A DNA stretch of 64,000 nucleotides from Fulvivirga marina. GTDB taxonomy: Bacteria > Bacteroidota > Bacteroidia > Cytophagales > Cyclobacteriaceae. The stretch covers positions 1 through 64,000 of the forward strand of contig NZ_JAEUGD010000058.1 in assembly GCF_016775155.1 (NCBI RefSeq). Direction: 5' to 3'. Position 1 is the first letter of the stretch; the number at the start of each line of letters is the position of its first letter. The notes beneath the pieces are model-generated. The model saw only the letters and a program-made list of their open reading frames with translations, did not search any database and was not told where the DNA came from. Positions 24,391 through 26,870 of the stretch are shown here, in pieces. The translations under genes were made by a program, and so were the position numbers.

Positions 24391-24762
24391 CCCACTGGCT
24401 CGGAAGTTTCTTCCGTGATACATAGGAAAGGTAAAGGACACCAGCCTCCCCGCTTGTGCCAGAGAGGGAGTGTGCCTCATCTGGTTAGATAACTAAAACC
24501 TGTCCTACAGACACCTCCCTTCCTTTCAGCAGAGTTTCTCGAAGAGGACCCTGCGTCACTCTAGCAACATTTGCACAAGCAATAAGCAACTCTACGGAGT
24601 TACTACATTTAAATCCAGAGAAAACTGGTATCTGTTAAACGAATCAGGGTTGTATTGGACTTTATGTAGCTTACATTTTTCATTTCTTTTAAAATAAGCA
24701 GAATAAAAGAAATATACTGATCAAAATGCAATACTCGATATTCCAGGGCCAAGTATCATAAA
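24391..24762. other. Non-coding spacer with dispersed repeat fragments
   Basis: 372 nt without a gene. It contains CTGTCCTACAGACACCTCCCT at 24500-24520, which recurs with two differences at 26433-26453, and the second copy of the 25-nt TCTCGAAGAGGAC repeat at 24537-24561 (first copy 21854-21878). Short repeat fragments of this kind suggest accumulated repeat debris. Confidence 0.55.
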
Positions 24763-24803
24763 GGACTCAGCAATTTTATCCTCGGTCTTTTTATTTAAAT
24801 CCG

Positions 24804-24811
24804 TATCTTTG
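24804..24811 (+). promoter_or_regulatory. Promoter -7 box of module copy 1
   Basis: TATCTTTG matches the Bacteroidota -7 consensus TAnnTTTG and lies in a segment that is identical in both module copies. No good -33 TTTG is found at the usual distance. The predicted transcript start would fall around 24816-24820, inside the GCGAAAC element. Confidence 0.5.
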
Positions 24812-24815
24812 AAGT

Positions 24816-24999
24816 GCGAAACTTGTCATAATTATTAACTCAATGGTGCTATTTGTATCTACTTGGCTAAAACAGAAAATCTTGGATAGGCATACGGGTG
24901 AAAGTCCCGAAGACCAATCAAAGCACCGCTTTGACGAGTTTCGCAGTGACCTATCCTATTTTTATTCACCTATTAATCCATTTCATTATGCGAAACTCG
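24816..24999 (+). promoter_or_regulatory. Candidate RNA switch leader, copy 1
   Basis: Three linked segments: GCGAAACTTG (24816-24825) at the predicted transcript start; CGAGTTTCGCA (24935-24945); TGCGAAACTCG (24989-24999) overlapping the ATG of the 87-residue ORF. The middle one is perfectly complementary to the third (11 bp) and complementary to the first with one G-U pair, so the pairings are mutually exclusive. The middle segment lies inside a 73-nt fold: GGATAGG (24884-24890) with CCTATCC (24950-24956), hairpin CGGG/CCCG (24895-24909) and hairpin CAAAGC/GCTTTG (24919-24933). Pairing with the start codon would form a pseudoknot. Function is inferred. Confidence 0.45.
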
Positions 25000-25046
25000 A
25001 ATGGTCCGAAAGCCTTTATCAAAAGCAATTATGCAGAACCTATTGA
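24843..25046 (+). CDS. Hypothetical 67-residue leader ORF, module copy 1
   Basis: Small ORF beginning MVLFVSTWLKQKILDRHTGE. The paralogue at 25598-25801 has exactly the same length and start position. In the shared KILDR segment three codons differ synonymously between copies (AAA/AAG, ATC/ATA, TTG/CTG), a sign of coding selection. Against this, much of the following difference is non-synonymous and two compensating one-base indels change a short stretch. Its 3' end overlaps the next ORF by 59 nt in the +1 frame. No family recognised. A frameshift fusion of the two frames is conceivable. Confidence 0.45.
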   Translation: MVLFVSTWLKQKILDRHTGESPEDQSKHRFDEFRSDLSYFYSPINPFHYAKLEWSESLYQKQLCRTY

Positions 25047-25251
25047 TGGCTCTGAAATTCTCAACACCCTAATCCCTGCCGAGCAGGAATTTATTAGCTG
25101 CATTAAACTTCTTGGGGTTGACGAATTGATCTTTTCATTAAAAATGATTCACAATTTGGCCTTGTATCATACCGAACTAGTTATTGATCAGGAGGAAAAG
25201 AATGCTCTTTTTAATTTAAAGATTCTTTGGGAGGAGTTGCAAAAGCTTTGA
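24988..25251 (+). CDS. Hypothetical 87-residue protein, module copy 1
   Basis: Starts at MRNSNGPKAF; a longer in-frame start at 24898 is unlikely, since the second copy starts at the same relative ATG. The conserved core is EPIDGSEILNTL, then EFISCIKLLGVDELIFSLKM and ALYHTELVIDQEEKNALFNL, predicted mainly helical and acidic. Differences from copy 2 in this core are mostly synonymous, supporting a real protein. No known family. The ATG is embedded in the segment complementary to 24935-24945, so translation may be controlled by the leader. Confidence 0.65.
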   Translation: MRNSNGPKAFIKSNYAEPIDGSEILNTLIPAEQEFISCIKLLGVDELIFSLKMIHNLALYHTELVIDQEEKNALFNLKILWEELQKL

Positions 25252-25258
25252 TTTTTAT

Positions 25259-25285
25259 GGGGCTGTTCTTGGGGATGGCCCTTTG
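25259..25285 (+). terminator. Terminator-like hairpin, module copy 1
   Basis: GGGGCTGT (25259-25266) pairs with ATGGCCCT (25275-25282), including G-U pairs, followed by TTTG. The same hairpin closes module copy 2. Confidence 0.5.
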
Positions 25286-25521
25286 TTTAATTTGCTAAAG
25301 GGTCCAATGGATGCTTACGCCAGAGAGGGGGAATACCCTTCTATTTTTACATCACTCCAAAATAATAGCGCCCGACCCAAAAAAAACCGTCATTCCTGAA
25401 TTTTCGAGTACGAGCGTGTTTTATGCAGGTATGTAATGAAAATATCAGGAATCTCCCCGACTCGGGGGATATGGCTCGACTTTTACTGACATTAACCATT
25501 CGAATAAGGCATTCCCTGTCA
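25286..25521. other. Spacer between the module copies
   Basis: 236 nt without a gene, mostly occupied by the second copy of the REP-like palindrome (25386-25457) and an adjoining short hairpin CCCCGA-C-TCGGGG at about 25453-25466. Confidence 0.55.
25386..25457. repeat. REP-like palindromic repeat, copy B
   Basis: Begins CCGTCATTCCTGAATTTTC and ends AAAATATCAGGAATCTCCCC. ATTCCTGA (25391-25398) pairs with TCAGGAAT (25444-25451). Copy A at 21731 has ATCCCTGA/TCAGGGAT, so one base pair changed on both sides. Confidence 0.65.
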
Positions 25522-25574
25522 GGACTCTGCAATTTAATCCTCGGTCTTTTTATTTAAATCCGTATCTTTGAAAC

Positions 25575-25754
25575 GCGAAACACATTATTATTTTATCATG
25601 ACGCCAAAGATCAAAAATCGGCTCAAACCAAAGATACTGGATAGGCATACGGGTGAAAGTCCCGCAGACCGTTCAAGGCGTTGCTTTGATGTGTTTCGCA
25701 GTGACCTATCCTATTTTATTCACTTATTAACCCATTTACATTATGCGAAACACA
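25575..25754 (+). promoter_or_regulatory. Candidate RNA switch leader, copy 2
   Basis: Same three-part layout as copy 1 with different bases at the variable end: GCGAAACACAT (25575-25585), ATGTGTTTCGC (25689-25699), and TGCGAAACACA (25744-25754) over the start codon. The middle segment pairs perfectly with both others, 11 bp each. The CTC/GAG of copy 1 has become ACA/TGT in all matching places. The 73-nt fold is kept: GGATAGG (25639-25645) with CCTATCC (25705-25711), and the second hairpin is now CAAGGC/GCTTTG, where A-U became G-U. Confidence 0.45.
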
Positions 25755-25801
25755 AATGGTCCGACCACCCGTCTCAAAGGCAATTATGCAGAGCCTATTG
25801 A
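25598..25801 (+). CDS. Hypothetical 67-residue leader ORF, module copy 2
   Basis: Paralogue of 24843-25046, same length, beginning MTPKIKNRLKPKILDRHTGE. An upstream in-frame ATG at 25568 exists, but the internal ATG matches the start position of copy 1. Overlaps the next ORF by 59 nt. Rich in Lys and Arg, no recognised domain. Whether it is translated as a protein, serves as a leader peptide, or only reflects the structured RNA is open. Confidence 0.45.
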   Translation: MTPKIKNRLKPKILDRHTGESPADRSRRCFDVFRSDLSYFIHLLTHLHYAKHKWSDHPSQRQLCRAY

Positions 25802-26006
25802 TGGCTCTGAAATTCTCAACACCCTAACCCCTGCCGAGCACGAATTTATTAGCTGCATTAAACTTCTTGGGGTTGACGAATTGATCTTTTCCTTAAAAAT
25901 GATTCACAATTTAGCCTTGTATCATACCGAACTAGTTATTGATCAGGAGGAAAAGAATGCTCTTTTTAATCTAAAGGTTCTTTGGGAGGAGTTGCAAAAG
26001 CTTTAA
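25743..26006 (+). CDS. Hypothetical 87-residue protein, module copy 2
   Basis: Paralogue of 24988-25251: MRNTNGPTTRLKGNYAEPID, then the same helical acidic core (ISCIKLLGVDELIFSLKM) with few amino-acid changes (for example Ile to Val near the C terminus and Gln to His in the middle). The N-terminal ~15 residues differ more. Function unknown. Its start codon lies in the complementary segment described for the leader. Confidence 0.65.
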   Translation: MRNTNGPTTRLKGNYAEPIDGSEILNTLTPAEHEFISCIKLLGVDELIFSLKMIHNLALYHTELVIDQEEKNALFNLKVLWEELQKL

Positions 26007-26013
26007 TTTTTAT

Positions 26014-26041
26014 GGGGCTGTTCTTTGGGGATGGCCCTTTT
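26014..26041 (+). terminator. Terminator-like hairpin, module copy 2
   Basis: GGGGCTGT (26014-26021) and ATGGCCCT (26031-26038) with a TTT tail, one base longer in the loop than in copy 1. Confidence 0.5.
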
Positions 26042-26042
26042 G

Positions 26043-26870
26043 CTTATCTGTATAGGACACAAGCAGTTTTCTAGAAAAACGCTTGTTTTGATATACACTT
26101 TATGGGTAAATGGTCAGGAGTATGATCCAAATAGAAATGTGAAAAATCGTTTGCTTTTAAGTATTCTTACAAAACGCTTTATTTTAAAACGAACATATGC
26201 ACGCTTGCCAAATACTACAGCCTGAACTTTCCCAACATCTCCTTCTATTTTCCCAATACTGCTAATCCAATTGCAACAAATCTAAATCTAGCTTAACCTG
26301 ATATCTCTGTCAATACCCAACCTTGGGTATTTTTTAGGAAATCTGCCTTGAAATAAGAATAGAGCAAGATAAAAAAGACAAAAAATGATGCCCGCCACAA
26401 GACCCCCCCTTGCTTTTGAAGCTAAACACCCTCTGTCCTACGGACATCTCCCTCAAGGGAGAAATTAGTGAGTAGATATCAGTCATGCAACAGGTCGGGT
26501 TTGGCTAGTGCTTTTAAGTTCGGGATTCCAGATATTTTCTCTGTTGCTCTACGAAAATTCCAGAATGACAGTGTTATATATTTTGTCGGCTCTATACTCA
26601 TAAAGTACAAGCTAATTCAACACTGCCATGTATATCCTACCTTAATTCACCAAATTTCACAAGGTATACGACCTTAATACTGGTATTTTTTTACCAAAAT
26701 TGATACGAAAATTATCAAAAATATGCATATGTCTGTAGTTTTACTTTTCTTTACATTAAAAACATAAATTCAAATCACTGCTTATCAACAATTTACAGCT
26801 CATCTTAACACTACTCACAAGGCCTACTCATCTGTTCTCATAACTTGTTTTGTAACTCAATTTTCAACAT
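26043..26870. other. Long non-coding spacer before the polysaccharide locus
   Basis: About 830 nt without a gene I can support; short open frames here lack any protein-like features. It contains the second copy of the CTGTCCTAC repeat (26433-26453) followed by a small hairpin CTCCCTCAAGGGAG, and just upstream of the AraC gene the dyad TTGATA-N7-TATCAA (26700-26718) and TGGTA-T7-TACCA near 26681-26697, which could be operator sites. Confidence 0.45.

What the first reader, a model, noticed from the sequence alone, without database searches (positions are those of the whole stretch)
24763..26042. Candidate RNA switch with co-varying antisense segments, present twice
Each module copy carries three related segments: one at the predicted transcript start, an internal complementary one, and one over the start codon of an 87-residue ORF. 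In copy 1 the internal CGAGTTTCGCA pairs with TGCGAAACTCG; in copy 2 the internal TGTGTTTCGCA pairs with TGCGAAACACA. The differing bases changed together at the paired sites, so the complementarity looks selected. The internal segment can pair either with the 5' end or with the start codon, and it sits inside a 73-nt fold closed by GGATAGG/CCTATCC. A start-codon-sequestering pseudoknot with a competing 5'-end anti-sequester is the simplest model. I know no described riboswitch class with these features. The alternative is DNA: three operator sites (direct, inverted, direct) whose specificity diverged in each copy.
Basis: partly seen in the sequence, partly recalled or inferred. Interest (0 to 1): 0.8.

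Follow-up and report, generated by a model that had tools for sequence, protein, structure and literature searches.

The report
Phage-type antisense immunity RNA in Bacteroidota
Two tandem copies of a small RNA fold carry an internal 'guide' that matches both the start of its own transcript and the start codon of the next gene; the same design occurs in many Bacteroidota and their phages, often in front of antirepressor genes, so it looks like an undescribed counterpart of the antisense RNAs by which some phages keep relatives out.

Summary
The two modules belong to an RNA family (stems P1, P2, P3, then an unpaired guide of about 11-16 nt) found in chromosomes and phages of Bacteroidota. In 94 distinct loci (60 different 12-nt guides) the guide matches its own 5' segment in 89 and a downstream segment in 88, against 10% and 8% with swapped guides; the AUG lies in the downstream match in 79 of the 88. 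Helices show many compensatory changes. The 5' segment starts 3-4 nt after a Bacteroidota -7 box in 65 of 89 loci, and P1 is followed by a U-run in 74%, so a terminated small RNA plus read-through mRNA is likely. In phages the RNA precedes a small ORF and an antirepressor (8 of 10 proteins tested), the layout of P1's c4-icd-ant operon; P4 has the same target order. Rfam's C4 model does not match. Best reading: a C4-like antisense immunity RNA that hides the AUG. The window copies have no antirepressor but their ORF is conserved; one relative guards a SymE-type toxin. Not a riboswitch. Trans action is inferred, not shown.

The parts
24804..24811 (+). copy 1, TATCTTTG, Bacteroidota-type -7 promoter box (TAnnTTTG)
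   Evidence: sequence; the box ends 3-4 nt before the 5' segment in 65 of 89 loci, 0.8% at random places
24815..24828 (+). copy 1, S1: 5'-terminal segment, complementary to the guide (one G.U)
   Evidence: (I12)
24843..25046 (+). copy 1, leader ORF (67 aa) that starts 14 nt after S1 and runs through the RNA core and past the ORF start in another frame
   Evidence: open through the core in 46 of 76 loci, 14% with shuffled leaders; role unknown
24884..24956 (+). copy 1, RNA core: P1 24884-24890/24950-24956, P2 24895-24898/24906-24909, P3 24918-24924/24928-24934
24932..24945 (+). copy 1, guide (antisense segment), overlapping the last bases of P3
24957..24967 (+). copy 1, U-rich run after P1 (terminator-like)
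   Evidence: a run of 4 or more T within 12 nt of P1 in 74% of 94 loci, 10% at random places
24988..25251 (+). copy 1, 87-aa ORF; S3 target 24989-24999 over the start codon
   Evidence: dN 0.114, dS 0.819 against the same-guide counterpart in G014
25563..25570 (+). copy 2, TATCTTTG -7 box
25575..25587 (+). copy 2, S1
25598..25801 (+). copy 2, leader ORF from its ATG
25639..25711 (+). copy 2, RNA core
25688..25700 (+). copy 2, guide
25743..26006 (+). copy 2, 87-aa ORF; S3 target 25744-25754
   Evidence: dN 0.109, dS 0.632 against the same-guide counterpart in G001

Best explanation
Each module makes an antisense RNA of the C4 / P4-CI working type. Transcription starts at S1 and part of it ends at the U-run after P1, giving a short RNA with an exposed guide; read-through gives the mRNA of the small ORF (in phages often small ORF plus antirepressor). 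The guide pairs with S3 and hides the start codon, shutting off translation; it can also pair with S1, in cis or on another transcript. I propose that S1 is the switch: it is the start of the mRNA and lies just before the leader ORF, so a guide bound there in trans would block the leader ORF and favour P1 folding and termination, while a newly arrived copy with no small RNA around would read through. In phages the output is the antirepressor, so a resident copy would give immunity against relatives with the same guide, and different guides would be different immunity groups. The window copies keep RNA and small ORF but no antirepressor: maintained chromosomal modules of the same design. Shown: fold, double match, promoter position, U-run, antirepressor context in phages, selection on the ORF. 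Inferred: translation block, terminated small RNA, trans action, immunity, the role of S1.
For: Guide matches own S1 in 89 of 94 and own S3 in 88 of 94 loci, swaps 10% and 8%. Core helices: 92.5% of cells paired in 63 sequences, 182 two-sided changes vs 49.8 +/- 6.8 shuffled, slid controls 52% or less; one search likewise. S1 sits 3-4 nt behind TAnnTTTG in 65 of 89 loci; U-runs after P1. Antirepressor-type domains in 8 of 10 phage proteins tested: AntA/ANT, Rha, KilA-N, Bro-N. Same order and topology as P4's C4 RNA: upstream target, C4 with two hairpins and a free stretch before the closing strand, downstream target at the ribosome site. C4, icd and ant form one operon in P1 (PMC8198154 passages) and C4 underlies P1/P7 heteroimmunity (PMC12197685 passages). 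Same-guide copies in different species stay alike in the RNA leader (89-93%) while their ORFs are 81-83% alike.
Against: No expression, processing or phenotype data. The local search found an antirepressor behind none of the other 77 loci (8 query proteins only, about 13 loci with under 1 kb held downstream), and a Pfam check of 10 proteins at 6 of those loci plus L046 context found none either but a SymE toxin, RadC-like proteins and an integrase. 8 of 17 distinct viral loci showed none (one with only 611 nt held). Six of 94 loci lack a clear downstream match, and in 9 of the other 88 the script found no AUG in it (in L118, L143 and L144 it lies one base earlier, by eye). An open leader ORF is no part of the C4 system as described in what I read. 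Window copies 1 and 2 differ by few changes with dN/dS 0.5. The within-genome guide test is confounded by descent.
Confidence: 0.72

Rival explanations
1. Purely cis-acting switch: S1 and S3 compete for the guide on one transcript; S1 pairs first during transcription and the exchange to S3 times or senses something. No trans action, no immunity.
For: Both targets and the guide are on one transcript; S1 pairs longer with more G.U, S3 shorter, as for a metastable pair.
Against: Does not explain why guides are so diverse (60 12-mers in 94 loci), why tandem copies with 95% identical ORFs keep different guides, the terminator-like U-run or the antirepressor context.
Confidence: 0.15
2. The chromosomal copies are type-I-toxin-antitoxin-like or abortive-infection modules: the antisense RNA silences a harmful small protein, and a phage with the same guide or target releases it.
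For: At L130 (Tannerellaceae MAG) the ORF behind the RNA is a SymE-type toxin (Pfam SymE_toxin 42.8 bits, cut-off 29), though its S3 match is only 7 nt. In P1 the ORF in this position, Icd, inhibits cell division (PMC8198154 passage). The 87-aa ORF family is conserved (dN/dS 0.08-0.17 between copies of different species). 25 of 1095 guide-by-phage-S3 combinations pair over 10 or more nt, G.U allowed (three of the guides come from loci that may be prophages).
Against: No toxicity evidence for the 87-aa ORF; no Pfam, NCBIfam, PDB-sequence or fold relative, weak PHROG and PADLOC hits only. Guide-phage matches may reflect the narrow make-up of start-codon segments.
Confidence: 0.22
3. Decaying prophage remnants without present function.
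For: The copies are intergenic and some relatives have broken ORFs; by eye the window neighbours look like ordinary genes.
Against: Same-guide copies of different species keep guide and S3 unchanged at dS 0.6-0.8 with dN/dS 0.14-0.17; six genera have genomes with 2 or more copies.
Confidence: 0.06
4. DNA operators: three sites (direct, inverted, direct) bound by a protein whose specificity diverged.
For: Same geometry at the DNA level.
Against: Compensatory changes in P1-P3 and the excess of G.U over mismatches in the S1 match (59 against 10 at positions 2-11; the register was chosen with a milder penalty for G.U).
Confidence: 0.03

Closest known systems
C4 antisense RNA of phages P1/P7 and CI RNA of satellite P4 (Rfam RF01695; targets RF03163)
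   Same: Antisense segment in the leader of the operon it controls; direct-inverted-direct order of targets; closing stem, two hairpins, free antisense stretch before the closing strand; downstream target at the translation start of a small ORF that precedes an antirepressor (P1); specificity set by guide and targets.
   Different: No C4 match on the window at E up to 10 or on 15 divergent loci at E up to 1; one guide instead of a' and b'; target is the AUG rather than the Shine-Dalgarno; upstream target is the transcript's first bases; U-run after a short P1; leader ORF; Bacteroidota; many chromosomal copies with a small ORF and no antirepressor.
P22 sar RNA
   Same: Phage antisense RNA that blocks initiation of antirepressor translation (PMC12197685 passage).
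   Different: As recalled, it has its own promoter and no such double target or core fold.
Chromosomal C4-like small RNAs of Acinetobacter baumannii
   Same: Many copies of a phage-type antisense RNA with variable guide in one bacterial genome (PMC5320573 passages).
   Different: They match the C4 family; the passages that I saw report no small ORF with a co-varying start codon.
SymE/SymR type I toxin-antitoxin
   Same: At L130 a SymE-type toxin ORF follows the RNA; antisense RNA over the toxin's start (recalled).
   Different: SymR is encoded opposite symE (recalled); here the RNA lies upstream on the same strand with its own fold.
hok/sok-type mRNAs
   Same: A 5' element competes with a translation-start element for one partner (recalled).
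   Different: Different fold and context, no specificity groups.

Membership tests
C4 antisense RNA (Rfam RF01695) | scores above the family's covariance-model threshold | tested here: not met
   no hit on the whole window at gathering, no C4 among 6 weak hits on 24750-26060, none on 15 divergent loci at E up to 1; the model finds P4 at 74.9 bits
C4 antisense RNA (Rfam RF01695) | antisense segment with complementary targets upstream and downstream in the same leader | tested here: met
   S1 in 89 of 94, S3 in 88 of 94 loci; P4 yardstick (its upstream target model scores 44.1 bits, just under the gathering score 46.7)
C4 antisense RNA (Rfam RF01695) | downstream target at the translation start of a small ORF followed by an antirepressor | tested here: inconclusive
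   start codon in the match in 79 of 88; antirepressor at 9 of 17 distinct viral loci, at none of 77 other loci by local search, not at the window copies
C4 antisense RNA (Rfam RF01695) | trans-acting processed RNA that confers superinfection immunity | not testable with these tools
   needs RNA-seq and lysogen tests
Riboswitch | conserved ligand-binding core that senses a metabolite | tested here: inconclusive
   GCAU, the P2 loop and GUGA are invariant or nearly so, but genes behind it are phage regulators and no Rfam riboswitch matches
Type I toxin-antitoxin | toxic small protein silenced by antisense RNA | tested here: inconclusive
   SymE-type toxin at one locus, L130; the 87-aa ORF has no recognised relative and its toxicity was not testable

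The most novel reading that the evidence does not exclude
Bacteroidota carry, in their own chromosomes, sets of 2-5 domesticated phage-immunity RNAs with mutually different guides. The guide types look older than the species: in the window's genome and two congeners the RNA types cut across the ORF relationships. Such sets would act as a small RNA-coded repertoire that silences the antirepressor or early operon of incoming phages of the same guide type, or that releases the guarded protein (at one locus a SymE-type toxin) when such a phage arrives.
Probability: 0.3. Interest if true: 0.88.

Novelty: new variant of a known kind. Interest (0 to 1): 0.74.

Why it matters
Phage immunity by antisense RNA is known from phages of Proteobacteria (C4 is listed only there and in phages in the Weinberg 2010 table). 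A separate family in Bacteroidota, whose phage regulation is little known, would show that the design recurs and adapts: here it hides the start codon, as fits a phylum that hardly uses Shine-Dalgarno sequences (recalled). Guide-target pairs give a readable code for immunity groups, so who excludes whom could be predicted from sequence and tested. The maintained chromosomal copies raise the question whether hosts turned the phage's own immunity RNA into a defence.

Tried and rejected
DNA-operator and inversion ideas were dropped once P1-P3 showed compensatory changes. Resemblance of the GGTGAAAGTCC loop to group II introns or retrons was only a thought from memory; Rfam gave nothing over the core. 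Bridge-RNA and TnpB/IscB guide ideas were dropped because, by eye, no nuclease or recombinase gene sits behind the RNA in the window; no search was made for it there. The 87-aa protein found no relative in viral contigs; families, PDB sequences and folds gave nothing usable. The within-genome guide test: first set P=0.34 for all genomes and 0.066 for the family, larger set 0 of 60 pairs against 5.0 expected, P=0.004 pooled, 0.066 and 0.041 by lineage; it is confounded by shared descent of loci, G013 outside the two lineages has two copies with the same guide, and the script's pattern missed some copies (G559, G622, G648), so I do not lean on it. Named phages with this RNA were sought by blastn with two loci; matches were short, mostly in the Rha-type gene, and none was convincing over the RNA. 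Literature searches for an earlier description: (searches listed only part of their hits); going by titles and starts of abstracts none describes this RNA. I saw passages only of PMC2864571, PMC4825925, PMC5320573, PMC8198154 and PMC12197685.

Rows dropped before counts: one search started from 112 places; left out were places with more than one pattern error, places without enough flank, rows of alignment files, duplicates by guide and next 40 nt, and five loci that I judged off-taxon or weak by hand (L092, L099, L112, L137, L177), leaving 94. A3 used 63 of 65 non-redundant loci; L105 and L169 were left out by hand. The box and U-run counts used 89 and 94 loci.

Full report
What is there. The window (G000:C54:1-64000) holds two head-to-tail copies of a module of about 530 bp, 94% identical over a 294-nt block that is mostly ORF and 85-88% over two leader blocks; aligned from S1 to S3 with gaps the leaders are 75% identical. 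Each has a TAnnTTTG box, a 5' segment (S1), a leader, a 73-nt RNA core with the internal guide, a U-rich run and an 87-aa ORF whose start codon lies in the third segment (S3). The genome has three more intact copies on another contig, two of them in tandem, and one ORF fragment.

The co-variation is not an accident of two copies. Copies 3 and 4 of the same genome have different guides (TGATGAAGTTCGCA, TGATGAGTGTAGCA) and their S1 and S3 follow. I then collected members in four ways: the protein in 145 genomes (6 have it, own included); model R1 in 390 genomes of the family (15, own included); a degenerate pattern of the core in viral contigs (18 loci, all 18 found again by R1 at E below 0.001); and the same pattern in one genome per species of GTDB, 96 stretches. 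Of these 96, R1 finds 69 of the first 80 at E up to 0.1 and R2 finds 13 of the last 16 at E below 1e-15. By record title 81 of the 96 are Bacteroidota (Fulvivirga, Dyadobacter, Flagellimonas/Muricauda, Flavivirga, Reichenbachiella, Pedobacter, Sphingobacterium, Tannerella and others); of the 15 off-taxon ones only L139 and L099 score well. Several viral contigs are the same DNA as genome loci (for example L083 and L109, L081 and L110, L075 and L142), so these are prophages of cultured Bacteroidota. R2 found 22 of 341 genomes of the order, mostly one genus that contig lengths show to be Dyadobacter, and 4 of 395 of the phylum sample, own included: widely scattered, not common.

Statistics. In 94 distinct loci with 60 different 12-nt guides I scored the best ungapped match of the reverse-complemented guide before P1 and after it. 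Own S1 12.8 and own S3 10.4 on average; 7102 swaps of guides that differ at 4 or more of 12 positions 7.2 +/- 1.2 and 7.0 +/- 1.2. At score 9 or more: 89 of 94 and 88 of 94, against 10% and 8%. Weak S1: L046, L058 (second copy), L089, L105, L159. Weak S3: L069, L079, L105, L130, L159, L178 (one copy). Of the 88, the AUG lies in the match in 79 (in 77 with its U at guide position 1); in L118, L143 and L144 it lies one base earlier by eye, L021 has ACG, and in L058 (first copy) the best-scoring place is not the start codon although a start-codon match exists. The loci are related, so these are not 94 independent events, but the range of guides means many separate co-changes.

RNA fold. A1 (18 sequences) and A3 (63 sequences) give P1 (7 pairs plus an invariant three-pair extension, CAU with GUG, and a bulged A), P2 (4 pairs) and P3 (6-7 pairs, variable). 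On A3, 92.5% of cells pair, 182 cells changed on both sides against 49.8 +/- 6.8 in shuffles, and no slid version exceeds 52%. One P1 pair shows GC, UA, CG and AU types. P3 is weaker, 78% paired on A3. The guide lies between P3 and the closing strand of P1. In the S1 match, departures from Watson-Crick at positions 2-11 are 59 G.U against 10 mismatches; in S3 16 against 27.

Ends. TAnnTTTG, the -7 element of Bacteroidota promoters (recalled; Bayley et al. is in the reference list seen), ends 3 nt (58 loci) or 4 nt (7 loci) before S1 in 65 of 89; at random places it occurs in 0.8%. S1 is therefore very probably the 5' end. A run of 4 or more T within 12 nt after P1 is seen in 74% of 94 loci against 10% at random places; with P1 this looks like a weak intrinsic terminator that would yield a short RNA with the guide and, by read-through, the mRNA.

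What it regulates. At the viral loci the RNA is followed by a small ORF (57-128 aa where found; at L070 the first ORF is the 244-aa Bro-N protein itself) and, at most of them, by a protein of 228-274 aa close behind. Ten proteins were put to Pfam: AntA+ANT (L078), AntA (L075), Rha (L071, L073), Rha+ANT (L083), KilA-N (L077), Bro-N (L080, L070); L067 and L069 had no antirepressor domain. L042, the same contig as viral L084, has a KilA-N-like ORF at 283 nt. In all 9 of 17 distinct viral loci (L082 counted with L073). Behind the other 77 loci the local search found none. A later Pfam look at ten proteins behind such loci gave no antirepressor but a SymE-type toxin directly behind the RNA at L130, RadC-like proteins at L131 (just above the cut-off) and L127 (below it), a phage integrase at L167, an AraC-type protein at L130 and a helix-turn-helix protein at L139. 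So the RNA drives more than one kind of cargo.

Comparison with C4. In phage P4 Rfam finds C4 at 74.9 bits, the a1b1 target model before it at 44.1 bits (gathering 46.7), overlapping an isrK match, and the sequence shows the downstream complement over the AGGAGG before an ATG. PMC4825925 (passage) says that CI RNA pairs with seqA and seqC upstream and downstream of it; PMC5320573 (passages) describes C4's three stems, its RNase P processing and its masking of ribosome sites; PMC8198154 (passages) the c4-icd-ant operon and Icd; PMC12197685 (passages) the heteroimmunity of P1 and P7. The Bacteroidota RNA has the same order, topology and, in phages, gene context, but does not match the C4 model, has one guide, and aims at the AUG. 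I call it a new family that works like C4; common descent is open.

The chromosomal copies. Most share one family of small ORF (A2; Dyadobacter members) with no recognised domain; its model has four helices (pLDDT 77) and no fold match. dN/dS is 0.14 and 0.17 between copies 1 and 2 and their same-guide counterparts, 0.16 for L022/L023, 0.11 for copy 3 and 0.08 for copy 4; between window copies 1 and 2 it is 0.5, on 12 changes. RNA types cut across the ORFs: copy 1 resembles G014 (leader 93%, ORF 81%), copy 2 resembles G001 (89%, 83%), while the window copies resemble each other in the ORF (95%) but not in the leader (75%), and G014 and G001 likewise (93%, 76%); copy 3 and its G001 counterpart 94% and 75%; copy 4 and its G014 counterpart fit less well (84% leader, 94% ORF). 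True orthology was not established; flanks match only in part. G001's contigs have the lengths of Fulvivirga kasyanovii contigs, and G001 is of the window's genus, so the window is probably a Fulvivirga. Guide types thus look older than the species and either recombine with the ORF or survive its homogenisation. 25 of 1095 combinations of non-phage guides with phage S3 pair over 10 or more nt; since start segments are drawn from a narrow set and some of these loci may be prophages, this is a lead and no proof.

Mechanism and its limits. Best supported is translation block at the AUG by the guide. Trans action of a short RNA is the natural reading of antirepressor context and guide diversity. 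For S1 I propose control of the leader ORF and termination, because S1 is the mRNA's first bases and an ATG follows shortly (mostly 9-17 nt after the first 12 nt of S1) whose frame stays open through the core in 46 of 76 loci, in all three frames relative to the core, against 14% with shuffled leaders. This step is the weakest.

Noticed in passing
window 24843-25046 and 25598-25801; many related loci: A leader ORF starting just behind S1 runs open through the RNA core in 46 of 76 loci (14% with shuffled leaders), in any of three frames, so openness rather than peptide sequence seems conserved.
   Followed up: partly
L130:5695-6105 (Tannerellaceae MAG): The ORF directly behind the RNA is a SymE-type toxin (Pfam, above cut-off); its start-codon match to the guide is only 7 nt.
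   Followed up: partly
L131:5096-5542 and L127:4643-5086 (Pedobacter): RadC-like proteins directly behind the RNA, one just above and one below the Pfam cut-off.
   Followed up: no
window 25383-25453 and 26524-26575; L008; L027: Copies of an intergenic repeat (CGTCATTCCTGAATTTTC ... GAAAATATCAGGAATC) flank the modules; 3 places in the genome matched one stretch of it.
   Followed up: partly
L069 4813-4905 and L079 2386-2484: Two related viral loci with a longer P1 and an S1 match but no match at the start codon; perhaps a sub-type with only the 5' target.
   Followed up: no
L072 1443-1600: The start codon lies at the 3' end of S3 instead of its 5' end, so the target position can shift relative to AUG.
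   Followed up: no
L021 1498 (G070): S3 has ACG where others have ATG; the frame is otherwise open.
   Followed up: no
L067, L071, L073, L075, L078, L081 leaders: Phage loci of one sub-type have a small hairpin directly after S1 (for example GTGGAGTGAGTCCAC), by eye.
   Followed up: no
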